The notes beneath the pieces were generated by a model, which worked only from the letters and a program-made list of their open reading frames with translations, did not search any database and was not told the origin of the DNA. Position numbers and translations under genes: made by a program. Positions 10,647 to 23,851 of a stretch of 64,000 nt of DNA are shown one piece after another (the first letter of the stretch is position 1; each line of letters opens with the position of its first letter). The stretch is taken from positions 2,869,588 through 2,933,587 of the forward strand of contig NZ_CP062788.1 in assembly GCF_025136295.1 (NCBI RefSeq), written 5' to 3'. Source of the DNA: Aestuariispira ectoiniformans (lineage in GTDB: Bacteria > Pseudomonadota > Alphaproteobacteria > UBA8366 > Aestuariispiraceae).

Positions 10647-11477
10647 ATGAAGGAGTTCTGGTGGATACCAATCCGACTGATCTGCTTCTGCGTCCTTCTT
10701 CTGGCCACCTCACCGTTACAGGCGCAAGAACCCCTCAAAATACGGGTTATTGGGCAGGCTGAGGGTACTTCCAACTATTATCATGACCTCCTCAAGCAGG
10801 CCCTGACGCAGGCGGGGCATCCCGTCGAACTGGATATTCGATACGACATTCCGCAAAAGCGCTATATAGCAATGTTCGAACATGGTCTGATCGACGTCGT
10901 ATGGTTATTGAAGAGCGCAGAGCGAAACCAAAAATACCAGCATGTAGATATTGACCTGACCAATGGCTTGCTTGGACAACGTGTCCTGATGATCCCACCC
11001 GGGACAGGCCAGGACTATGCCGAGATAAAGAACCTGGACAATTTTCGTAAATCAGGAAAAGTCGGTGCATTCGGGACGAACTGGTTCGATATAGATGTCT
11101 GGGAGGTCAATGACCTTCCCTATGTTGTCCTCGACGGCGACTGGCGTCGCATCTACGATCTTCTCTTATTACCAAGGCCGAGGCGGAATACCCCGCCCTT
11201 CGACTATTTTTCAAGAGGCGTCTCGGAAATATCCTACGAGATTTCCATCCATCCCTCTCTCAAGATCGAACCGCATCTCCTTTTCATCTATGACCGCGAT
11301 TTTGTCTTTTATATCAGTGATAAATCTAAATATCTTCAGCCAATCATTGAACAAAGCCTGCACCAAGCACAAGCAAGCGGACTAATGCAACGTCTGTTCA
11401 AACACTATTTTTCCGAGCCATTGGCCAATCTGGACCTGGACAAGCGTGTACGCCTAAACCTGAAGACACCGAAGTAA
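10647..11477 (+). CDS. Periplasmic solute-binding-like protein, function unknown
   Basis: This 276-aa protein has a signal peptide ([27 protein letters not shown], shown by its hydrophobic core and the LQAQ cleavage region). The mature part resembles family 3 (amino-acid type) binding proteins: an opening strand [23 protein letters not shown], a two-lobe-like pattern, and a C-terminal helix [19 protein letters not shown] as in the last helix of such proteins. The usual basic-amino-acid ligand motifs are not evident. No permease or ATPase gene is adjacent, so it is more likely a sensor, accessory or orphan protein than part of a local transporter. It stands alone between the uvrA terminator and trmFO. 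Confidence 0.75.
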
Positions 11478-12983: not shown

Positions 12984-13625
12984 GTGGAAACGGCGCTGAT
13001 CGCATTAACGACTTTTTTTGCCGTCATCGGACCGGCCGATGTTGCTGCGCTGTTTGCGGCCCTGACCCCCAACAGCACCGCAGTCGAACGCCGGGCCATG
13101 GCACTGAAGGGCATCCTGCTTGCCACCGGCATCCTGCTGCTCTTCGCGTTTTTCGGAAAAGCCATCCTCACGCTCTTCGGCATATCCCTGCCTGCCTTGC
13201 GTATCGCGGGGGGAATCCTGCTTCTTCTGATTTCGATCGACATGGTCTTTGCACGTTCATCAGGCAGCACAACGACCACAAGCGAGGAAAACCAGGAAGC
13301 CAGCCGCAAAGATGATATTTCGGTATTTCCGCTTGCAACCCCCCTGATCGCGGGCCCGGGCACCATCGGCGCCACGATCCTGCTGGTGTCGGAGGCGCAT
13401 GGCGACTGGCAGCAAATCGGGTTTGTGATCGGGGCATTGCTCGCAATTCTGCTGCTGACCTTCGTGCTTCTGCTTTTGGCCTCACAGGTGCAAAAAGTCC
13501 TCGGCGTAACCGGTCTTCACGTAGTTTCCCGTATCGTGGGCGTTTTGCTGGCCGCCCTGGCCATTCAGTTCATATTGGATGGAATCAACGCAAGCGGACT
13601 GATCCCGACAGGATTACCACGCTAA
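12984..13625 (+). CDS. MarC family integral membrane protein
   Basis: This 213-aa polytopic inner-membrane protein of the MarC/UPF0056 family (six predicted helices) starts at a GTG preceded by AAGGA with an 8-base spacer. Family features are the opening FFAVIGPADVAALFAALTP, the ALRIAGGILLLLISIDMVFA helix pair and the central PLATPLIAGPGTIGATILL motif, which repeats the N-terminal half. A hydrophilic linker rich in Thr, Ser and Glu separates the halves. The molecular function of MarC proteins is unresolved despite the multiple-antibiotic-resistance name. The stop overlaps the stop of the convergent gene by a few bases. Confidence 0.9.
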   Translation: METALIALTTFFAVIGPADVAALFAALTPNSTAVERRAMALKGILLATGILLLFAFFGKAILTLFGISLPALRIAGGILLLLISIDMVFARSSGSTTTTSEENQEASRKDDISVFPLATPLIAGPGTIGATILLVSEAHGDWQQIGFVIGALLAILLLTFVLLLLASQVQKVLGVTGLHVVSRIVGVLLAALAIQFILDGINASGLIPTGLPR

Positions 13626-14470
13626 AATTGCCCGGTCAGATGCTTGGCGATCAGGCCCATGACCCGCAACGCAGGCTTTTCTGCAAGCGTAGGGGAAAAA
13701 GGATCATTATCCGCACGTCGTAGCTGTCGTAGATAGCTGTCACAAAGTGATGCCAATCGAAGTGCAGGCAGGGCTTCTTTCCGGCAGTCCCGGCGCAATT
13801 CCCGCGCCAGATGAAGTTCCTGCAAAGCAAGGGTACAGACGTCCCCCACAGCAGCGGACACAACGCTACTGCCCTCACCTTTCGCCAAATCCTTGCCCTC
13901 AATCCCATGTTTGGCCTGCAGGGTTTCGGGAATCGACACCCAATGTCGCCGCAGGTGGAATGGCAATGCTCGCATAAGTCCAATCAAAGCCCATGCCGTC
14001 CCAATATGGCCTGCTGCCCTTCTGGATTTCTCACAGTCACCGGCGAGAACAACAGTCATCAGTTCAGATAGGTTTCCACCGGTTGCCCGCGCATACTGGA
14101 GCAGCGCTTCTTCGTTTGCGAAACCCGCATTATCCAGATCGCATTCCCGTTTATCGATCAGTGAGGAAAAGAGCTCCTCCGGCAAATCATGGTTTCGGAT
14201 CGCCTGATGCAGTGGAATGACGACTTCATGACGTCTCGGCTGATCCTGAAAACATTCGTCGATGGACTCGCGCCACCATTGAAGCCGGATCTGACCCAAC
14301 ATGGGTTCACTGACAGTATCGCCGGTCTTGGCAATCTCATGGTTAAACGCAATCAGCGCAAACAGCGCTTCTCTTTTATCCGCCGGAGCCAGCATCGCAA
14401 TCGTGAAACGGTCGGAATCCTTTTCCTTTGCAATAGTTGCACAGCGCGACAGTTCAGTTGTTTCCGTCAT
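13622..14470 (-). CDS. NDUFAF6-like protein with non-catalytic squalene/phytoene-synthase fold
   Basis: This 282-aa member of the squalene/phytoene synthase superfamily lacks the Asp-rich metal-binding motif that catalysis needs. Where DDxxD should be it reads AFNHEIAKTGDTVSEPMLGQ, followed by RLQWWRESIDE. That block closely matches the mitochondrial complex I assembly factor NDUFAF6 (a VELA..KDSVSE..IG..R.QFW pattern). By analogy it may assist assembly of respiratory complex I at the inner membrane. It is the last gene of the yajC-secD-secF operon region, and its start overlaps the upstream synthase-like gene by 4 bases, together with an NDUFAF3-type gene. Substrate-free function in bacteria is inferred, not shown. 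Confidence 0.8.
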   Translation of the reverse strand: MTETTELSRCATIAKEKDSDRFTIAMLAPADKREALFALIAFNHEIAKTGDTVSEPMLGQIRLQWWRESIDECFQDQPRRHEVVIPLHQAIRNHDLPEELFSSLIDKRECDLDNAGFANEEALLQYARATGGNLSELMTVVLAGDCEKSRRAAGHIGTAWALIGLMRALPFHLRRHWVSIPETLQAKHGIEGKDLAKGEGSSVVSAAVGDVCTLALQELHLARELRRDCRKEALPALRLASLCDSYLRQLRRADNDPFSPTLAEKPALRVMGLIAKHLTGQF

Positions 14471-15369
14471 GCCTCAGCCTTCTCACGACACATCTCGTCG
14501 AGTTCGTTCGGATCTTCCTGAAACACACATGACGGATCCCGGCAAATATTCGAAAACAACTTGCCGTAAATTGCGAGTAAGGCTTTGAAGCATTTACGCT
14601 CGGCCCAAGGCATATCGTCCGACAAATGGCTCACATAGGGAGCCATCTTCCTACGATGTCTCTCCGCTTTTTCTGCGATTTCCGCAATCAGTGAATTTCC
14701 GGGCAAGGACCCGGCCAGCAGTTGATCCCGTAACGAATAGGGAATCGTCAGAAGCTGTGCACATCCCGCTGCATCTTTGGCGATGTCACGCATGATATGC
14801 ACAAGATAGCAGAAGATCGCCATGTCCTGTGCCATCGGATACAACTGCTCCGAGGACGGGCCGTGGAAAACGCCATCCGGCTTCTGGTTTGCCAGCAAAA
14901 TATAGAGATAGACGACCGCAGGAGAAACGGTCGCACCAACACTATAACGATCGAAATCGTCCCAATCCTGAATTGGCTCTTCGTTGACGTCCCTCTTCAT
15001 CGCCATAGCCAGATTATGCCAGGGAGCTGTTCCCAAATTTGAGAGGCAAACCGTTTCTGCCAGGGCGCGGTAGATCGCATCTTCCGCCTTGTTGCCAGCG
15101 GCCCTCAGTCCAACGGACTTCAGTTCCCAATCATCAATATGCCGGATGTATGCCTCGCGATGCTCCTCCCTATCCTTTTGGGACATGGTCAGGAAGTCAT
15201 CGTCAATCAGGTCGTCGATGAACCGCATAGAGGCATAGCTTGCTGCAAAGAGCGGTTTTTTTGCCGATGGCAGCATCTTGCTGACAAACCAGAGGTTCGA
15301 TCCTCCGCCGCGGGTAACAGAGGCACAATAGCTGAGATCATCGGCCAAGGAATGGCTGGCTTTTGACAT
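14467..15369 (-). CDS. Squalene/phytoene synthase family protein
   Basis: This 300-aa protein has the trans-isoprenyl diphosphate synthase head-to-head fold. Unlike its downstream neighbour it keeps acidic motifs: FIDDLIDDD near residues 50-58 and HIMRDIAKDA near 195. It also has GGGSNLWFVSKMLP at the N-terminus and the internal DRYSVGATVSPAVVYLY, like the YCYxVAGxVG segment of phytoene synthases. It could therefore be catalytically active on prenyl diphosphates. No squalene-hopene cyclase, desaturase, hpn or crt gene is nearby, so a hopanoid or carotenoid role cannot be assigned. It sits 11 bases downstream of the Mth938-domain gene and overlaps the NDUFAF6-like gene by 4 bases. Confidence 0.8.
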   Translation of the reverse strand: MSKASHSLADDLSYCASVTRGGGSNLWFVSKMLPSAKKPLFAASYASMRFIDDLIDDDFLTMSQKDREEHREAYIRHIDDWELKSVGLRAAGNKAEDAIYRALAETVCLSNLGTAPWHNLAMAMKRDVNEEPIQDWDDFDRYSVGATVSPAVVYLYILLANQKPDGVFHGPSSEQLYPMAQDMAIFCYLVHIMRDIAKDAAGCAQLLTIPYSLRDQLLAGSLPGNSLIAEIAEKAERHRRKMAPYVSHLSDDMPWAERKCFKALLAIYGKLFSNICRDPSCVFQEDPNELDEMCREKAEA

Positions 15370-15380
15370 TCACTTCCGCC

Positions 15381-15764
15381 TCAGTCAGCGGGCATGGCGA
15401 TAAGCGCTGCGGCGACCCTGCGGCCCTCAGACAAGAGAATATTATACGTGCGGCAGGCAGCGCCTGTGTCCATCTGGTCTATGCCCACGCCCCGGTCACG
15501 CAGCGCCTGTTTGAAGTGGCTTGGCACCAACTCCATACTGCTACCGCACCCGAGAAGGAGAATTTCAACTGACGGCTCCGCATCGAAAACCATTTCAAGG
15601 CTTTCAACGGTCAAATCCGCAATGGATGTGATATTCCATTCGTGAACCATGTCGGGAAGAACCACAATCGACCCACGATATCGGGTCGTGTTCACTTTGA
15701 AGCGGTCGGGGCCATAGGAAACAATCACCTGCTTCCCATCCGGTGTCATCGGTGTAATGTCCAT
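15381..15764 (-). CDS. Mth938-domain (NDUFAF3-like) protein
   Basis: This small 127-aa protein of the DUF498/Mth938 family is homologous to the mitochondrial complex I assembly factor NDUFAF3. Diagnostic segments are YRGSIVVLPDMVHEW, the EILLLGCGSSMELVP motif (a Rossmann-like GxG turn) and GVGIDQMDTGAACRTYNILLSEGRRVAAALI at the C-terminus. No signal peptide or membrane helix is seen, so it should be cytoplasmic. It lies 33 bases after secF and just upstream of two synthase-fold genes, one NDUFAF6-like. Co-occurrence of both factors behind secDF suggests a role in assembling a membrane complex, most simply NADH dehydrogenase I. Confidence 0.88.
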   Translation of the reverse strand: MDITPMTPDGKQVIVSYGPDRFKVNTTRYRGSIVVLPDMVHEWNITSIADLTVESLEMVFDAEPSVEILLLGCGSSMELVPSHFKQALRDRGVGIDQMDTGAACRTYNILLSEGRRVAAALIAMPAD

Positions 15765-15797: not shown

Positions 15798-16733
15798 TTA
15801 GGCGCTTGCTTCCTGTCCCGGCACAGCTTCCTCCTCGTCACCACGGTTCGGCCGCAGGTAAAGCAGCAGCGGCACCGCCAGGGCGATGGAAGAATAGGTA
15901 CCAATCACCACCCCCCAGATCAGGGCAACGGAGAAGCCGCGAATAACCTCGCCGCCAAAGGCAACCAGTGCGATCAGGGCCAGCAATGTCGTGAAACTGG
16001 TCATGACCGTACGGGACAATGTCTGGTTGATCGACAGATCAAACAACTCGGCAAATCCCATCTTCTTGTATTTCCGCATATTCTCGCGAACGCGGTCGAA
16101 GACAACGACGGTATCGTTAATGGAGTAGCCTGCAATCGTCAGCACCGCAGCCACAGTTGCGAGGTTGAACTCCATTTGCAGAACCGAGAACAGCCCGACT
16201 GTGGTGATCACGTCATGCGTCAGTGCAATAATCGCGCAGACACCAAACTGCCATTCAAAACGGAACCAGATATAGACCATGATTGCCAGCACAGCCGAGA
16301 TCACAGCCCAAAGTGCTGCTTCCTGCAGTTCCTGTCCGACTGTAGGGCCAACCAGTTCGGTCCGGCGATATTCGCTGACCCGATCCCCCAATGCTTCCTT
16401 TACGGAAGCAATCGCGGCCTGTTGTTCCTTCTCCCCGCCTTCCTGACGCTGAACCCGGATCAGAAGATCGTTTTCTGCGCCAAACTGCTGGATAGAAACA
16501 TCACCAAGCCCCAATCCACCAAGATCGGAACGGATTTGAGAAACATCCGCCGGGCCTTCTGTCTGCACCTCAATCAGGATACCGCCCAGAAAGTCGATAC
16601 CCAGGTTCAGGCCCTTCACCCCAAAAGCCGAAATGGAGGCGAGCACAAGGAGACCGGAAAATGCAAATGCCAGAAAACGCCGACCGGTGAAGTTAATCGC
16701 GGGTGTTTCTGGAACAAGTTTCAAAAACTTCAT
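15798..16733 (-). CDS. secF: Protein translocase subunit SecF
   Basis: SecF is the membrane partner of SecD in the proton-driven SecDF complex that pulls preproteins through SecYEG. From ATG 16733 it has 311 aa: membrane helix 1 (FLAFAFSGLLVLASISAFG), a periplasmic P4-like domain opening with GLNLGIDFLGGILIEVQ, then the membrane cluster with TIAGYSINDTVVVFDRVRENMRKYKK, the conserved SecF signature, and SLSRT-like NQTLSRTVMTS. Upstream in-frame codons to 16802 would overlap secD and are rejected; ATG 16733 gives the normal N-terminus 19 bases after the secD stop. Confidence 0.96.
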   Translation of the reverse strand: MKFLKLVPETPAINFTGRRFLAFAFSGLLVLASISAFGVKGLNLGIDFLGGILIEVQTEGPADVSQIRSDLGGLGLGDVSIQQFGAENDLLIRVQRQEGGEKEQQAAIASVKEALGDRVSEYRRTELVGPTVGQELQEAALWAVISAVLAIMVYIWFRFEWQFGVCAIIALTHDVITTVGLFSVLQMEFNLATVAAVLTIAGYSINDTVVVFDRVRENMRKYKKMGFAELFDLSINQTLSRTVMTSFTTLLALIALVAFGGEVIRGFSVALIWGVVIGTYSSIALAVPLLLYLRPNRGDEEEAVPGQEASA

Positions 16734-16752
16734 AATACCAAACCTTCCGCAA

Positions 16753-18333
16753 TCAAATCGGTAACGTCTTGGGACGCTTGCGTGTGTACCATGCAACGAC
16801 AAGCAGACGGGTCACCATGATCGCAGTGAACATGGACGTGATGATGCCGATGGACAAAGTCACTGCAAAGCCCTTGATCGGCCCTGACCCGAAAGCAAAG
16901 AGGAGAGCCGCGGCAATCAGCGTGGTGAGGTTCGAGTCGACAATTGTCGTAAACGCCCGTTTATACCCCGCTTCAATGGAGTTGGACGCACCACGCCCGT
17001 TTTTGAACTCTTCCTTGATACGTTCGAAAATCAGAACGTTTGCATCAACCGCCATACCGATCGTCAGCACGATACCGGCGATACCCGGCAGTGTCAGCGT
17101 CGCCTGAAGTACAGACAGCGAGGACAGGATCAGGGCCACGTTGAACAACAGTGCAACGTTGGCCAACACGCCGAACAGGCCATAGGAGGCAATCATATAG
17201 CCCATGACAAGGACCAAGCCGATGATGCTGGCGATACGACCGGCATCAACAGAGTCCTGACCAAGCCCCGGACCGACAGAACGTTCTTCCAGAATGGTCA
17301 AAGGCGCCGGCAATGCCCCTGCCCTGAGCAACAAGGCGGTCTCATTGGTTTCCTTGACAGTGAAACGACCGGTAATGATACCGCTGCCACCCGGGATCGG
17401 CCCTTGGATCTGCGGCGCGCTGATCACTTTGCCATCAAGCACGATGGCAAAGAGTTTGCCTACATTTTCCGAGGTGATCTTGCTGAATTTCTTGCCGCCA
17501 ATGGCGTCAAACTGGAAGCTGACGGCCGGGCGGTTATTCTGGTCAAAGCTCGGTTGCGCATTGGTGAGATGTTCACCACTGACGCCGACACGTTTTTTCA
17601 CCAGATACATCCGCTCCGGCGTGCCATCGGGACGCGTCTCGATAGAGGGCAGCAGCATGCTTCCCGGCGGAACGCGGCCATTCATGGCATCCGCAACAGA
17701 GTTGGTCTCATCGACCATGTGGAAAGTCATCTTCGCGGTCTTACCAATACGCCGCTTGATGTCTTCGGTATTTTCCGCACCAGGCACCTGTACCAGAATA
17801 CGGTCCGCGCCCTGACGCTGGATGATGGGTTCCTTCGTGCCGTCTTCGTCGATACGACGACGAATAACTTCGATGGACTGCCCCACAACCTGGGAAACTT
17901 CCGCCTGAACGTCCTTCTCAGACATGGAAATCTGGAAATGGCCATTCTCGGAAACGTTGACCACCAGTCGATTATCAAAATCCCGGATAATCTGGCGGAC
18001 ATCGTCAATCTTGCTGACGTCTTTTAATGTGAAGACAGCGGCTTTCTTCGAAACGCCCAGACCGGAATACCGGAGACGGGCTTTACGAAGGTCGGAGCGT
18101 AGCTCATCGACAACGTTTTCAAGCCGTTCCTCCAGGACCTTGTCCGCTTCCACCTTGAACAGGAGATGTGCACCACCCTGCAGGTCGAGGCCGAGGTTGA
18201 TCTGTTTACTCGGCATCCAGGACGGCAGTCCGGCCAAGATCCCCACCGGGAGGAAGTTCGGTGCGGCGTAGAGAACCCCTAGCAGGCAAACCACGCCGAT
18301 CAGTGCTTTTTTCCAAATGGGAAAGTTTAACAT
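16753..18333 (-). CDS. secD: Protein translocase subunit SecD
   Basis: SecD has 526 aa: an N-terminal membrane helix (KKALIGVVCLLGVLYAAPNF), the conserved QINLGLDLQGGAHLLFKV segment, a large periplasmic P1 domain, and the C-terminal five-helix region. The latter has the proton-path motif GMAVDANVLIFERIKEEF and TTLIAAALLFAFGSGPIKGFAVTL. It works with SecF and YajC, driven by the membrane potential, after SecA-dependent insertion. Gene order yajC-secD-secF is the standard bacterial arrangement. Confidence 0.97.
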   Translation of the reverse strand: MLNFPIWKKALIGVVCLLGVLYAAPNFLPVGILAGLPSWMPSKQINLGLDLQGGAHLLFKVEADKVLEERLENVVDELRSDLRKARLRYSGLGVSKKAAVFTLKDVSKIDDVRQIIRDFDNRLVVNVSENGHFQISMSEKDVQAEVSQVVGQSIEVIRRRIDEDGTKEPIIQRQGADRILVQVPGAENTEDIKRRIGKTAKMTFHMVDETNSVADAMNGRVPPGSMLLPSIETRPDGTPERMYLVKKRVGVSGEHLTNAQPSFDQNNRPAVSFQFDAIGGKKFSKITSENVGKLFAIVLDGKVISAPQIQGPIPGGSGIITGRFTVKETNETALLLRAGALPAPLTILEERSVGPGLGQDSVDAGRIASIIGLVLVMGYMIASYGLFGVLANVALLFNVALILSSLSVLQATLTLPGIAGIVLTIGMAVDANVLIFERIKEEFKNGRGASNSIEAGYKRAFTTIVDSNLTTLIAAALLFAFGSGPIKGFAVTLSIGIITSMFTAIMVTRLLVVAWYTRKRPKTLPI

Positions 18334-18389: not shown

Positions 18390-18782
18390 TTATTTATCTT
18401 TTTTACCGCCAAAGAGACCGGCGAGGCCGCCTTTTTTCTCTTGAGCAGCCGTCGTATCATTTGCGGGTTCGGTCTTGGTGAGAACGTCCATGACGGTCTG
18501 TTTTGCAACACGAACCTTAACGCCTTCTGCGAGTTCAACCTGCAGTTCGTTGTCGTCGATCACCTTGGTGACCGTGCCGTAGAAACCACCACCGGTCAGA
18601 ATCTTGTCGCCACGGCGAATGGAAGACAGTTTATTCTGGTGATCTTTCTGCTTCTTCTGCTGCGGACGAATCAGCAGGAAATAGAAAACAACAAAAATCA
18701 ACGCCAAAGGCAGCATGCTGGTCAACAGGCTACCGCCGCCAGCCGCGCCTGCAGTCTGAGCCCACGCTTCGGAAATGAACAT
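18390..18782 (-). CDS. yajC: Preprotein translocase subunit YajC
   Basis: This 130-aa accessory subunit of the SecDF-YajC complex has a single N-terminal membrane helix (LPLALIFVVFYFLLIRPQQKK, with the invariant RPQQKK stop-transfer sequence). A small beta domain follows (RRGDKILTGGGFYGTVTKVIDDNELQVEL), then a Lys/Gly-rich tail (GGLAGLFGGKKDK). The start ATG is preceded by GGAGGGAG. It is the first gene of the operon; its promoter must lie in the 168-bp gap shared with the divergent DUF815 ATPase. Confidence 0.95.
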   Translation of the reverse strand: MFISEAWAQTAGAAGGGSLLTSMLPLALIFVVFYFLLIRPQQKKQKDHQNKLSSIRRGDKILTGGGFYGTVTKVIDDNELQVELAEGVKVRVAKQTVMDVLTKTEPANDTTAAQEKKGGLAGLFGGKKDK

Positions 18783-18950
18783 GGAGATACTCCCTCCGGT
18801 TAACTACACATATGGTCTATATAGGAAGACAATTCCGCCGGGACTATACCCTTCATTACGGATTATGCAATGGAAAGGCGGCGCTTTCCCTTGCGGAACG
18901 ATCCACCTGTGATAGGGTCCGCAAAAATCTTCCTGCAAGAGGCTGTAAAT

Positions 18951-19808
18951 ATGAAAGAATCGACCCTGGTTCCCTTTCTGACACGAATCGCAGATGCCCT
19001 CGATCGCATGGCCCCGGAAAAGCGTCCTACGCTGGATCTGGCTTCTGCGGATGCCTTCGTCTGGGAGGCAGATGCCCTTGTCCTGGAACCGGTCCCGTCG
19101 GTGAACCGCGTCGCGATTGATCTTCTCAAGGGAATTGAACGCCAAAAAGACGCCTTGATTGCCAATACAGAAAGATTTGCCAAAGGCTTACCGGCAAACA
19201 ACGCCTTGCTTTGGGGCGCGCGCGGCGGCGGCAAAAGCTCCCTGGTGAAAGCAGCGCATGCCTTTGTAAATAAGCAGACGAACAAAGAGCTGGCCCTGGT
19301 TGAAATCCACCGGGAGGATATTCCCACGCTGCCGGCCCTGCTGAACCTGCTTCGCGACAGTTCCAGACGCTTCATCCTCTTCTGCGACGATTTGTCCTTC
19401 GACGGGCAGGACGACAGCTACAAATCCCTCAAGGCCGTGCTGGAAGGTGGCATTGAAGGCCGACCAGACAATGTTGTGTTTTACGCCACATCGAACCGAC
19501 GTCACCTGATGCCGCGGGATATGATCGAAAACGAACGCTCGACCGCGATCAACCCGTCCGAGGCCGTTGAAGAAAACGTGTCCCTCTCCGATCGCTTCGG
19601 CCTATGGCTTGGCTTCCACAATTGTGACCAGGATACATATTTCCAGATGATTGCCGGTTACGTGGACGCCTACGGGCTGAAGGTTACCGAAGAAGAATGG
19701 AAACCCAAAGCCGTAGAGTGGACCGTCACCCGTGGATCGCGTTCAGGGCGTGTGGCTTGGCAATTCATCCAGGATCTTGCCGGTGAACTTGGGCAGAAAT
19801 TGACCTGA
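18951..19808 (+). CDS. DUF815 family AAA-type ATPase
   Basis: This is a 285-aa cytoplasmic P-loop ATPase of the DUF815 family. It has Walker A GARGGGKSS at about residues 89-97, Walker B FILFCDDLSF at about 140-149, and the family block VVFYATSNRRHLMPRDM that acts as sensor 1. Downstream are SLSDRFGLWLGFHNCDQDTYF and a C-terminal GSRSGRVAWQF helix. The start is ATG 18951 (AGAGG 8 bases upstream); an in-frame ATG at 18870 is less likely. The family is widespread in alphaproteobacteria next to yajC, but its physiological role is not established. It ends 4 bases from the convergent nlpD-like gene. Confidence 0.88.
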   Translation: MKESTLVPFLTRIADALDRMAPEKRPTLDLASADAFVWEADALVLEPVPSVNRVAIDLLKGIERQKDALIANTERFAKGLPANNALLWGARGGGKSSLVKAAHAFVNKQTNKELALVEIHREDIPTLPALLNLLRDSSRRFILFCDDLSFDGQDDSYKSLKAVLEGGIEGRPDNVVFYATSNRRHLMPRDMIENERSTAINPSEAVEENVSLSDRFGLWLGFHNCDQDTYFQMIAGYVDAYGLKVTEEEWKPKAVEWTVTRGSRSGRVAWQFIQDLAGELGQKLT

Positions 19809-19812
19809 GTGC

Positions 19813-20862
19813 CTAGCTAGACAAGTATTTCTTGGGATTAAGGACTCTCTGCCCTTTTCGAACCTGGAAATGCAACTGCGGCCGATCGACATCACCCGAA
19901 CTGCCGACACGGGCAATGGTCTGGCCGCGTCGCACCTGATCACCCTGACGGACCAGAATGGTACCGTTATGGGCATAGGCCGTCATATAACCATCCGCAT
20001 GTTTCAACAGAACCAAATTGCCGTAACCCTGCAGGGAGCCACTATAGGCGACGACACCGTTTTCGGCGGCCTTCACTGCCGTTCCCCGTGGTGCGGCGAT
20101 ATTCAGACCGTCGTTGCGACGTCCCTTCCCTTTTGGCCCAAAGGTGGAGATGACCCGTCCGCGAACCGGCCACAGGAATTTTGACGAAGAACGCTTTGGC
20201 GGGCTGGGAATTGCTGCGACTTCCCTGCGGTGTCGCGGTTCCGCCGGTCGTGCTGCAGGTTTTGGAAAGCCCTTGGCTGTAAAAGTTGTCTTCTGCGGCG
20301 TTTGCGCTGCGACGGTCTGCGTTCTGGGTTTGCTGGTTTCAGTCACCGTCCGACTTTGCGGCGCACTGTGACTGGCCTGCTGAACAATTGTGGACGGCAA
20401 AACCAGCTTCTGCCCCACGGCAATTGTATAGGGTTCGCGAAGACTATTGGCCCGGACCAACTCGCTCATCGCCACATTATATTGCCGCGAAATCGCATAG
20501 ACTGTATCGCCGCGTTTCACCACATGCACCCGGGCTTTCGGAATGGTCAGCCTTTGACCGGTCTGCAGTTTGTAAGGAGGCGTCAGGTTATTCGCCGTAA
20601 TGATCGTACGCAAAGGTGTTCCATAGGCCCGGGCAATCGAATAGAGCGTCTGGCCTTTGCGCACCACATGGCGGCCATCCGCACGAACGGTAACCGGTAC
20701 TGAACTGGAAGGCGAAGACCTGGATTCAGTGCCTTTGTCCGAATCATCATAGATTCGCACATTCGGACCTCTATCCTTCAGGACGAGGCCACAGCCCGCA
20801 AGCAGGAAGGCCGCAGACAAAAGCAGAAATACCGGTCTGGCTGTTTGGCGAAGAATCTTCAT
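19813..20862 (-). CDS. nlpD: NlpD-like lipoprotein: two LysM repeats and a degenerate LytM (M23) domain
   Basis: This is an envelope lipoprotein of 349 aa with lipobox LLAGC after a hydrophobic signal. Two LysM repeats that bind peptidoglycan follow (starting VRKGQTLYSIARAYG and VKRGDTVYAISRQYN), then a Pro/Thr-rich linker and a C-terminal LytM domain. In catalytic M23 enzymes zinc is held by an HxxxD and an HxH motif. Here the first reads NDGLN and the second QLH, so ligands are missing. This matches E. coli NlpD, an activator of the amidase AmiC rather than an enzyme. Start ATG 20862 places the lipobox correctly. It lies downstream of pcm, as in many proteobacteria. Confidence 0.88.
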   Translation of the reverse strand: MKILRQTARPVFLLLSAAFLLAGCGLVLKDRGPNVRIYDDSDKGTESRSSPSSSVPVTVRADGRHVVRKGQTLYSIARAYGTPLRTIITANNLTPPYKLQTGQRLTIPKARVHVVKRGDTVYAISRQYNVAMSELVRANSLREPYTIAVGQKLVLPSTIVQQASHSAPQSRTVTETSKPRTQTVAAQTPQKTTFTAKGFPKPAARPAEPRHRREVAAIPSPPKRSSSKFLWPVRGRVISTFGPKGKGRRNDGLNIAAPRGTAVKAAENGVVAYSGSLQGYGNLVLLKHADGYMTAYAHNGTILVRQGDQVRRGQTIARVGSSGDVDRPQLHFQVRKGQRVLNPKKYLSS

Positions 20863-20894
20863 AGAGGAAACTGTAGACAGGACGGCCACAACAC

Positions 20895-21542
20895 TCAATA
20901 ACCTTGCCTGTCACCCGTTCCGGGCAAAAGCGGCACGAACCGCACCGGGCCGAGGTCCTCGACGTCGATTCCGTTGTCGGTCTTGGTCACTTTCAGGAGG
21001 TCCTGATGGTCGCGATGCTCGCCAACCGGCACAACCATGATGCCCCCAACAGCAAGCTGATCCACCAGGACAGGTGGAATATCCGCTGCCGCCGCCGTAA
21101 CCATGATGCGCTGGAACGGCGCCTGCTCTGGCCAGCCCAAGCCACCATCACCCGTTTTGCTGGTAATATTATGGCGACGCAGATCGGTAAAACGCTGCTC
21201 GGCCTGCTTGAGCAATTCCCGGTGACGTTCGATCGTGTAAACCCGTCGGCAAAGATGAGACAGGATCACGGCCTGATAGCCGGACCCCGTCCCGATTTCC
21301 AAAACCTTGACCCGTTTGTCGACATCAAGCGCCAAAGTCATGAGGGCGACAATCATCGGCTGGCTTATGGTTTGCCCCTTGTCGATAGGCAGGGCCGAGT
21401 TTTCGTAGGCATGCTCCCGGAAAGTCTCGGGAACAAACAACTCGCGGGGAACGCGCTCCATAACGTCGAGAATCGTCTTGTCGACGATCCCGCTGCGGCG
21501 CATCTCCAAGATTAAACGAGCTCTATCCTCGACCTGGGTCAT
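20895..21542 (-). CDS. pcm: Protein-L-isoaspartate O-methyltransferase
   Basis: This SAM-dependent repair enzyme methylates L-isoaspartyl residues in aged proteins. It keeps the family signature GQTISQP in the ALPIDKGQTISQPMI segment, the SAM motif VLEIGTGSGYQAVIL, and the GDGGLGWPEQAPFQRIMVTAA block. The 216-aa product from ATG 21542 is normal length; a GTG four codons upstream (21554) is an alternative. It lies between serS and nlpD. The surE gene that often separates serS and pcm is absent. The other pcm-type gene in this window (46093-46746) lacks the GQTISQP motif. Confidence 0.94.
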   Translation of the reverse strand: MTQVEDRARLILEMRRSGIVDKTILDVMERVPRELFVPETFREHAYENSALPIDKGQTISQPMIVALMTLALDVDKRVKVLEIGTGSGYQAVILSHLCRRVYTIERHRELLKQAEQRFTDLRRHNITSKTGDGGLGWPEQAPFQRIMVTAAAADIPPVLVDQLAVGGIMVVPVGEHRDHQDLLKVTKTDNGIDVEDLGPVRFVPLLPGTGDRQGY

Positions 21543-21581
21543 TGTTTGCTGCACGAAAACAGGGCCTTTACACCGACGTTA

Positions 21582-22868
21582 TCAGGAAGACGGCAATTCG
21601 ATCTTTTCAATACCACCCATATAAGGCCGCAATGCGTCAGGAATTGTTACGCTGCCATCCTCATTCTGGTAGTTTTCCAGAACTGCGATCAAAGTACGGC
21701 CTACAGCAAGGCCCGAACCATTCAACGTATGCACAAACTGCGTGCCTTTCTCACCTTTCGGGCGGAAACGCGCCTTCATGCGCCGCGCCTGGAAGTCGCC
21801 GCAAACAGAGCAGCTGGATATCTCACGATAGGTGTCCTGCCCCGGCAACCAGACCTCGATATCATAGGTCTTGCGCGCACCAAAGCCCATGTCACCGGTG
21901 CAGAGAACGATCACGCGATAGGCCAGACCAAGGCGTTTCAATACCTCTTCAGCACATCCGACCATACGCTCCAACTCATCCAGTGACTTATCCGGATGGG
22001 TTACGCTGACCATTTCCACCTTGGAGAACTGGTGCTGGCGAATCATGCCCCGCGTATCCTTGCCGGCGGCCCCCGCCTCAGAACGGAAGCAGGACGTCCA
22101 GGCCGTGAAGCGCATAGGCAGTTCCTCTTCGGCCCAGATATTGTCCCGCGCCAGATTGGTCAGGGGAACTTCTGCCGTCGGGATCAGCCAATAGTCGTCA
22201 TCGGTATGGAACAGGTCTTCCTTGAACTTGGGAAGCTGACCGGTGCCATACAGGGCGTCGTCGCGAACCAATGCAGGCGGAACCGTTTCAGAATAGCCAT
22301 GTTCCATGGTCTGCAGGTCCAGCATGAAGTTGCCCAACGCACGCTCCAGCCGGGCAAGCGCCCCTTTGAGGACTACAAAGCGAGCCCCGGAAATCTTGGC
22401 AGCCGTTTCAAAGTCCATCAGGCCGAGTTGTTCGCCCAACTCAAAATGCTGTTTCGGCTCGAAGTCACACTTACGTGGCTCACCGACACGGCGAATCTCA
22501 ACGTTTTCGTCTTCATCAGTACCAAAGGGAACATCGTCATGCGGCAGGTTCGGCAGAGTTTCAAGCAGGCCGGTCAGCGCTTGCGCAGCATCCCGCTCCT
22601 CCTGCTCTGCAGCGGCGAGTTTTTCTTTTAGTCCCTGGACTTCAGCCATAAGCTGGGAGGCTTTTTCTTCATCCCCGGACTTTTTGGCCTGACCAACCTC
22701 TTTGGAGGCGGTGTTACGACGAGCCTGCATCTCTTGCATGGTTGTCTGCAGAGAACGGCGGGACTCATCCAGGTTCAAAATCTCCTGCGCTTTGGGCTCA
22801 ACGCCACGGGCAGCCATAGCTTTATCAAAAGCGTCTGGATTCTCACGGATGAATTTCAAGTCATGCAT
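21582..22868 (-). CDS. serS: Seryl-tRNA synthetase
   Basis: This class II aminoacyl-tRNA synthetase has 428 aa. It has the N-terminal long coiled-coil arm for tRNA-Ser (residues about 30-100, Glu/Lys/Gln-rich) and the opening [22 protein letters not shown]. Class II core motifs include [28 protein letters not shown] (motif 2) and the C-terminal [19 protein letters not shown] (motif 3). It charges tRNA-Ser with serine in the cytoplasm. It is downstream of tatABC on the same strand, with a 128-bp gap. Confidence 0.97.
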
Positions 22869-22996
22869 AGCTGAAAACCTTGAACTGAATTGTTCTTATT
22901 GCATCACGGTTTATAGGAGACCGCGCGGCAGGCGTAAACCGTCCAATTCAAGGCGATTCAACTTCAGGCAAAGGCCCCGTTCCCTAAATCCGGGAT

Positions 22997-23851
22997 TTAT
23001 GAGTCTTTCGGGGCCTCTTCGCCTTCTTCTTCATCCTTTTCATCATCCTCGCCGACGTCCAAACCCAGTTCCTTGTCCCGGGCAATCTGCTGTTTGCGGA
23101 TCATGACCGCACAGATAATGGAAATTTCGTAGAGAAGGATAATGGGAATAGCCAAACCGATCTGGCTCAACGGGTCCGGCGGTGTCAGGACCGCCGCAGC
23201 CACAAATGCCAGCAGAATGGCATAGCGCCGCTTCTTGCGCAGACCTTCCGCCGTTACAATCCCGATGCGGGCCAACAGGGACAGGATTACAGGCAATTCG
23301 AAGCTGATCCCGAAAGCAAAGATCAAACGCATCACCAATGAAAGATATTCATTGGCTTTCGGTTCAAGCTGCACATCGAGTGAATTGGCCTGGCCAATCT
23401 GTTCGAACCCAGCAAAGAACTGCCAGGCAACGGGCAAGACCACGTAATACACGAAGGACGCACCAATCAGGAACAAGAGAGGTGTGGCGATCAAAAATGG
23501 CAGGAATGCATTTTTCTCGTGTTTGTAGAGGCCTGGAGCCACAAACATCCAGACTTGACTGGCAATGATTGGGAAGGAAATACAAAAGCCCGCGAAGAAC
23601 GCAATCTTCACATCAACAAAGAACTTCTCATGAAGCGCCGTATAGATAATGCGGCGCCCTTCCTGTCCGGCCCAGATATGGTTGAGAGGCTCGACCAGGA
23701 AGTTGAAGATGTAGTCTGCAAGCGGGAAACAAACGAAGAATGCGACCAAAAGCACGACGACGGAGATCATCAGTCGTTTACGCAACTCCACAAGATGCTC
23801 CAGAAGCGGAGCCTTACTCTCATCGACGGCCGCGTCACTATTATTAATCAC
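22997..23851 (-). CDS. tatC: Sec-independent protein translocase subunit TatC
   Basis: TatC is the polytopic receptor core of the twin-arginine translocase, which exports folded proteins. It has 284 aa and six membrane helices. Hallmarks are the cytoplasmic N-terminus [15 protein letters not shown] and the first-loop FYVDVKIA-like [20 protein letters not shown], plus the [11 protein letters not shown] helix. The C-terminus is an acidic tail rich in Asp/Glu. Its start overlaps the tatB stop by 4 bases. A window-encoded client is the Tat-signalled dipeptide-binding protein at 60967-62697. Confidence 0.96.

What the first reader, a model, noticed from the sequence alone, without database searches (positions are those of the whole stretch)
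13622..15764. NDUFAF3- and NDUFAF6-like genes linked in one operon behind secDF
The Mth938-domain protein (15381-15764) and the synthase-fold protein with a lost DDxxD motif (13622-14470) resemble two mitochondrial complex I assembly factors. Finding both with 4- to 33-base spacings directly after yajC-secD-secF suggests an ancestral assembly module tied to membrane insertion. It may explain why these factors travelled together into mitochondria.
Basis: partly seen in the sequence, partly recalled or inferred. Interest (0 to 1): 0.6.

Follow-up and report, generated by a model that had tools for sequence, protein, structure and literature searches.

The report
Complex I helper genes beside secDF
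An alphaproteobacterium keeps the bacterial versions of two human mitochondrial complex I assembly proteins close together behind membrane-insertion genes, an arrangement I believe was first noted in 2009, but here with a third neighbour that looks like a working relative of the broken enzyme.

Summary
On the minus strand yajC-secD-secF is followed 33 bases later by a DUF498/Mth938 gene (NDUFAF3-like) and then by two, not one, squalene/phytoene-synthase-fold genes: 14467-15369 with intact aspartate motifs ("SPSa") and 13622-14470 ("AF6"), whose AKTGD/ALPFH fits the AxxxD/AxxxH published for human and Arabidopsis NDUFAF6. The linkage is real: of 143 Alphaproteobacteria, 65 hold both families (Fisher 3e-15), and in 51 of these AF6 lies within 10 kb downstream of DUF498 on the same strand. 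From memory, Saada et al. 2009 already tied NDUFAF3 to SecF/SecD/YajC and C8ORF38 (=NDUFAF6); that paper was not held, so this is unverified. Inherited synteny is a plain alternative to a functional module. New here: in all 6 class-sample genomes with SPSa (the window's own included), SPSa lies beside AF6, on either side, and in at least one genome far from DUF498. An enzyme/pseudoenzyme pair is the boldest reading left open.

The parts
13622..14470 (-). AF6: NDUFAF6-like squalene/phytoene-synthase-fold pseudoenzyme (282 aa)
   Evidence: PF00494 172.5 bits; AxxxD/AxxxH motifs; AlphaFold2 model pLDDT 92.5, TM 0.80-0.85 to dehydrosqualene synthases
14467..15369 (-). SPSa: second squalene/phytoene-synthase-fold protein with intact DDxxD and DxxxD motifs (300 aa); overlaps AF6 by 4 bases
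   Evidence: PF00494 64.8 bits; motifs kept in its family; model pLDDT 91.8, squalene-synthase fold; next to AF6 in 12 of 12 same-family relatives
15381..15764 (-). DUF498/Mth938-domain protein, NDUFAF3-like (127 aa)
   Evidence: PF04430 122 bits; PDB relatives 2fvt, 2fi9, 2gm2; 39% to human NDUFAF3 letters recalled by me
15798..16802 (-). secF (longest ORF; true start probably downstream, since it overlaps secD)
   Evidence: TIGR00966 340 bits
16753..18333 (-). secD
   Evidence: TIGR01129 497 bits
18390..18782 (-). yajC
   Evidence: TIGR00739 90 bits
12984..13625 (+). MarC-family membrane protein, convergent with AF6 (4-base overlap)
   Evidence: PF01914 181 bits
11506..12921 (+). trmFO, convergent neighbour
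   Evidence: NF003739 684 bits; also found beyond AF6 in 16 of the 18 AF6-bearing stretches
18870..23851 (.). wider neighbourhood: DUF815 ATPase (+), then LysM/M23 (nlpD-type), pcm, serS, tatC (all -)
   Evidence: Pfam scans

Best explanation
This is the alphaproteobacterial home of two complex I assembly factors. Shown: the DUF498 and AF6 genes resemble NDUFAF3 and NDUFAF6 closely enough to be their bacterial counterparts, they are co-distributed and mostly kept near each other in Alphaproteobacteria, and AF6 is a squalene-synthase fold without its metal-binding aspartates. Inferred: made together with SecDF-YajC, DUF498 and AF6 act at the cytoplasmic face of the inner membrane on the early intermediate of NADH:quinone oxidoreductase that joins the quinone-binding subunits to NuoH (ND1), AF6 as a membrane-associated scaffold and DUF498 as a partner that holds or checks the Q-module. 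In this family an extra, motif-intact synthase (SPSa) lies between them and directly beside AF6; most likely it works with AF6, by binding or making a prenyl diphosphate or as its dimer partner (inferred, the weakest step).
For: Domain hits; AxxxD/AxxxH in the window as in human and Arabidopsis NDUFAF6 (passage of PMC12470011), 47 of 47 AF6 sequences lacking Asp at the first position of both motifs. Recalled human letters fit AF6 and DUF498 and not SPSa. Co-distribution 65/12/13/53 of 143, Fisher 3e-15, with 51 of 65 linked within 10 kb. All 78 DUF498 genomes and all 77 AF6 genomes have NuoH. In human cells depletion of NDUFAF3, with similar results for NDUFAF6, disrupts a 200-kDa early sub-complex, and NDUFAF6 may stabilise the sub-complex that meets ND1 (passages of PMC4938201). 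SPSa lies beside AF6 in 6 of 6 class genomes that have it, the window's own included.
Against: No bacterial mutant was found that ties either gene to complex I. 51 of 129 NuoH-bearing genomes have no DUF498 match, and E. coli, a control, has NuoH but is not among the controls that match PF04430 or PF00494, so neither is generally required. 14 of 65 genomes with both families are not linked (9 of the 14 on different contigs, so some may be assembly breaks). Even in the window's own family the run DUF498-SPSa is tight (under 100 bases) in only 3 of the 10 relatives in which both were fetched. Adjacent genes of unrelated function are kept too.
Confidence: 0.6

Rival explanations
1. Inherited synteny only. 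The order nlpD-type gene, DUF815 ATPase, yajC-secD-secF, DUF498, AF6, trmFO goes back to an early alphaproteobacterium and persists because little broke it; neighbours need not work together, and the bacterial functions of DUF498 and AF6 may not concern complex I.
For: These neighbours keep the same places in many relatives; in the window the block extends to pcm, serS and tatC (these three were not tested in relatives). Only 6 of 54 linked genomes have a gap of 200 bases or less.
Against: Insertions of several kb between DUF498 and AF6 have not dispersed them in most genomes; human orthologues act on the same assembly step.
Confidence: 0.3
2. SPSa is simply the cell's ordinary head-to-head prenyl synthase (squalene- or phytoene-type) that happens to lie here; its next-door AF6 is irrelevant to it.
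For: Motifs intact, fold of dehydrosqualene/squalene synthase; no other PF00494 gene apart from AF6 in this genome; three CrtI/CrtO-like FAD oxidoreductases elsewhere in it, all below the NCBIfam cut-offs; relatives of SPSa in Thalassospira, Magnetococcales and other phyla are not next to AF6.
Against: No SQHop_cyclase_C match in the genome; none of the NCBIfam HpnC/HpnD/CrtB cut-offs is reached; 5 of the 12 same-family genomes carry a strong synthase (240-253 bits) elsewhere and still keep SPSa beside AF6.
Confidence: 0.35
3. DUF498 and AF6 are not orthologues of NDUFAF3/6 but merely share folds with them.
For: Human sequences used were recalled, not fetched; another human DUF498 protein, AAMDC (C11orf67, PDB 2ab1), also matches the window protein, though weakly (E 2e-4).
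Against: The motif pattern matches published human and Arabidopsis residues; recalled NDUFAF6 prefers window AF6 (30%, E 6e-45) over the synthase-type proteins in the test set (best E 9e-14) and over SPSa (no significant match).
Confidence: 0.05

Closest known systems
NDUFAF3/NDUFAF6 gene linkage to secF-secD-yajC (Saada et al. 2009, Am J Hum Genet 84:718; content recalled, paper not held, only its reference line seen)
   Same: Same gene families, same neighbourhood, same inference of a tie to membrane insertion
   Different: I recall no mention of a second, motif-intact synthase; here spacing, frequency and the size confound are counted
NDUFAF6 (C8orf38; C. albicans NDU1)
   Same: Squalene/phytoene-synthase fold without the two DxxxD motifs (passages); window has AxxxD/AxxxH as in human and Arabidopsis
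   Different: Bacterial; overlaps a motif-intact relative; no complex I phenotype tested
HpnC/HpnD and CrtB/CrtM head-to-head synthases (PF00494)
   Same: Fold and both aspartate motifs of SPSa
   Different: SPSa is far below every NCBIfam cut-off (46.5 bits against 278.6 for HpnD), has an invariant His where the CrtM-like 8is6 has Asn (alignment), and Lys in RDxxKD in 12 of 12 same-family sequences though not in Thalassospira; no hopene cyclase match in the genome

Membership tests
NDUFAF6 (AF6, 13622-14470) | SQS_PSY fold | tested here: met
   PF00494 172.5 bits; model against CrtM-like 8is6 TM 0.85, rmsd 2.2
NDUFAF6 (AF6, 13622-14470) | Loss of both DxxxD motifs, with AxxxD and AxxxH/SxxxH in human and Arabidopsis | tested here: met
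   AKTGD and ALPFH in the window; first Asp absent from both motifs in 47 of 47; published pattern, which also says Drosophila and nematode proteins depart from it
NDUFAF6 (AF6, 13622-14470) | Groups with eukaryotic NDUFAF6 rather than with synthases | tested here: inconclusive
   Clear by score, but with human letters recalled by me and no tree
NDUFAF6 (AF6, 13622-14470) | Needed for complex I assembly | not testable with these tools
   Needs a deletion strain
NDUFAF3 (15381-15764) | Mth938/DUF498 domain | tested here: met
   PF04430 122 bits
NDUFAF3 (15381-15764) | Closer to NDUFAF3 than to AAMDC | tested here: inconclusive
   Recalled NDUFAF3 39%, E 4e-25; AAMDC 2ab1 E 2e-4; different programs and databases
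HpnD/HpnC/CrtB (SPSa, 14467-15369) | NCBIfam equivalog cut-off | tested here: not met
   HpnD 46.5 of 278.6, HpnC 35 of 250.45, CrtB 20.4 of 550
SQS_PSY superfamily (SPSa, 14467-15369) | Fold and both aspartate motifs | tested here: met
   PF00494 64.8 bits, cut-off 26; DDxxD in 42 of 42 and RDxxxD in 41 of 42 AF6-adjacent sequences, the 42nd being a gap there (duplicates included); fold

The most novel reading that the evidence does not exclude
SPSa and AF6 form an enzyme/pseudoenzyme pair: the motif-intact synthase fold binds or makes a prenyl diphosphate product and its inactive partner presents it, or the pair as a heterodimer, to the membrane part of nascent complex I. The AF6/NDUFAF6 family would then descend from the regulatory half of a lipid-binding pair, and mitochondria kept only that half.
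Probability: 0.15. Interest if true: 0.7.

Novelty: new variant of a known kind. Interest (0 to 1): 0.35.

Why it matters
What NDUFAF6, a synthase fold without catalytic residues and a Leigh syndrome gene (abstracts in the listing), does at the molecular level is, to my knowledge, not settled. If some bacteria keep it beside a motif-intact relative, the question of whether NDUFAF6 still binds a prenyl lipid becomes testable in alphaproteobacteria. The main linkage itself is not new, as far as I recall.

Tried and rejected
Considered and dropped: SPSa as the gene found generally between DUF498 and AF6. 20 of 54 linked genomes have a gap of 800-1010 bases, but of the 30 loci fetched (the best-scoring AF6 matches, 1.5 kb on each side) only 5 hold SPSa; three others looked at have an opposite-strand superoxide dismutase or Urate_ox_N protein, and several ORFs chosen there matched nothing in Pfam, some probably because I chose the wrong frame. 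SPSa as hopanoid HpnC/HpnD: cut-offs not met, no SQHop_cyclase_C match. Neighbours of SPSa outside the AF6-linked group (folE, PTPS, lepA and signal peptidase, SDR, GSDH, PGK genes) showed no common pathway. Literature: searches found no paper; searches gave capped listings (8 to 30 papers shown of up to 997) in which I saw no account of this gene order; passages only were read of PMC3436739, PMC8007014, PMC12470011, PMC7050145, PMC4938201 and PMC10910544. The library holds open-licence papers only, so this says little about print.

In one search, 14 duplicate rows were dropped (86 to 72) before the tree. In one search a cut of 110 bits, set by me, separated AF6 from other synthases; weaker best hits (21 of 98) were not counted as AF6, among them G069, G080 and G105, which lie just behind or near DUF498 and may be true but diverged AF6, so the linkage count is if anything low. 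NuoH was counted at any E <= 0.001, which includes a few divergent or partial matches.
Full report
What is there. The minus-strand run is yajC (18390-18782), secD (16753-18333), secF (15798-16802 as longest ORF), DUF498 (15381-15764), a 300-aa synthase-fold gene (14467-15369; SPSa here) and a 282-aa synthase-fold gene (13622-14470; AF6 here). Gaps from secF onwards are 33, 11 and minus 4 bases. MarC and trmFO follow convergently. The genome, one contig of 4.36 Mb, has one PF04430 and two PF00494 matches, all here. Its nearest named relatives in the SPSa tree are Curvivirga and Aestuariispira (Aestuariispiraceae).

What AF6 is. It has the fold (PF00494 172.5 bits; AlphaFold2 model pLDDT 92.5, TM 0.80-0.85 to dehydrosqualene synthases) but not the metal ligands. 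The two motifs read AKTGD and ALPFH. A passage of PMC12470011 states that human and Arabidopsis NDUFAF6 have AxxxD and AxxxH/SxxxH in place of DxxxD (and that Drosophila and a nematode depart from this); the window fits. Over 47 AF6 sequences the first residue is A 42, S 4, V 1 for motif one and A 40, G 6, S 1 for motif two: never Asp. The last residue is E in 39, D in 5 and other in 3 of 47 for motif one, and H in 32 of 47 for motif two (Asp in 2). With human letters that I recalled and did not fetch, NDUFAF6 matches the AF6 profile at 212 bits and window AF6 at 30%, E 6e-45, against E 9e-14 for the best synthase-type protein in the set and nothing significant for SPSa; NDUFAF3 matches window DUF498 at 39%, E 4e-25.

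Linkage. One search covered 19 genomes, the window's own and 18 relatives (12 of its family, 6 of its order); I fetched 20 stretches from these 18. In 15 of the 20, secF is followed by DUF498 and then AF6 on the same strand; G004 and G012 show SPSa-AF6-trmFO without secDF in the stretch, G014's contig starts near AF6, and two stretches (L038, L042) are other synthase loci. In a class-wide sample of 143 genomes (completeness 95% or more asked for; the window's own included), DUF498 is in 78, AF6 at 110 bits or more in 77, both in 65, AF6 alone in 12, DUF498 alone in 13, neither in 53 (Fisher 3e-15, not corrected for kinship). AF6 lies within 10 kb downstream on the same strand in 51 of these 65; with weaker AF6 matches counted, in 54 of 73 (43 within 3 kb). 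Linkage to secDF was not counted in the class sample. Gaps among the 54: 6 of 200 bases or less, 20 of 800-1010, 16 of 1010-2500, 12 above 2500, so a tight operon is the exception. Of the 14 genomes with both but unlinked, 9 have the two on different contigs, which may be assembly breaks.

Complex I. NuoH is in 129 of 143; all 78 DUF498 and all 77 AF6 genomes are among them, none among the 14 without NuoH (Fisher 7e-6 and 9e-6). This does not stand alone: all 14 are 1.8 Mb or smaller, and among genomes of that size DUF498 is in 2 of 22 with NuoH and 0 of 14 without (p = 0.51), AF6 in 1 of 22 and 0 of 14 (sizes counted by eye). 51 NuoH genomes lack a DUF498 match, and E. coli is among the controls with NuoH but not among those with DUF498 or PF00494. 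The functional tie therefore comes from human work: depletion of NDUFAF3 disrupts a 200-kDa early sub-complex, with similar results for NDUFAF6, and NDUFAF6 may stabilise the peripheral-arm sub-complex that meets ND1 (passages of PMC4938201). Evolutionary-rate work also groups NDUFAF3, C8orf38 and C2orf56 (abstract and passages of PMC3436739).

SPSa. It is far from AF6 (13% identity in a profile alignment) and from named synthases (NCBIfam cut-offs not met), but has the fold (pLDDT 91.8, TM 0.61-0.71 to CrtM-type structures, a looser match than AF6's) and the motifs. Across 26 sequences, the window's included, D52, D53, D56, H191, R194, D195 and D199 are invariant; the His stands where the CrtM-like 8is6 has Asn (alignment; that this Asn binds Mg is recalled). 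It is next to AF6 in 12 of 12 same-family relatives, with 28-150 bases between the matches, whereas DUF498 and SPSa lie under 100 bases apart in only 3 of the 10 relatives in which both were fetched. In the class sample SPSa (E <= 1e-25) occurs in 6 of 143 genomes, in 5 families, and lies beside AF6 in 6 of 6, at most 133 bases between the matched stretches: upstream in five, downstream in G041. In G004 the pair lies some 77 kb from DUF498, and in G076 on another contig. Two of the six, the window's genome and G004, are of the family from which the profile was made. In a wider set, 30 of 73 distinct SPSa rows, window included, are next to AF6. The exceptions are a Thalassospira clade of 22 rows (two genomes tested hold AF6, but not within 10 kb of SPSa), a related gene in G015, and rows from Magnetococcales, Verrucomicrobia, Eisenbacteria, Zixibacteria, Ignavibacteria and archaea; of six non-Thalassospira genomes tested, five have no AF6 match at E 1e-8 and one a weak one (39.5 bits). 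So SPSa is a family of its own that also lives without AF6; the tree needs at least four changes of the adjacency label, with long branches that make the number unsure.

Verdict. That paper was not held, and only its reference line was seen. Lemire 2017 on NDUFAF6 evolution was likewise seen only as a reference. What is added here is the count of the linkage, the size confound in the complex I argument, the syntenic alternative, and the SPSa-AF6 pairing. That pairing is the part worth following; its mechanism is inference.

Noticed in passing
   Followed up: partly
L065:8494-10903; L071:9375-10924: In an unnamed bacterium and a Candidatus Eisenbacteria MAG, an SPSa relative directly follows GTP cyclohydrolase I (with a PTPS gene nearby in L065): an unexplained tie to pterin/queuosine-type genes.
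   Followed up: no
L059:1985-3823: In a Magnetococcales MAG an SPSa relative is convergent with an HpnC-like synthase (184.6 bits, below the 250.45 cut-off).
   Followed up: no
L038:7238-9991: In G015, of the same order, an SPSa-like gene lies away from the secDF locus and next to a carotenoid-isomerase/CrtI-like oxidoreductase, which fits an enzymatic role for that branch.
   Followed up: partly
window 10647-11477: A 276-aa protein whose N-terminus looks by eye like a signal peptide matches no Pfam family at E 0.01; it lies between uvrA and trmFO.
   Followed up: no
G000:C1:2264490-2267690 (outside the window, same genome): Two divergent CrtI/CrtO-like FAD oxidoreductases side by side in the window's genome, although its only PF00494 matches are SPSa and AF6.
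   Followed up: no
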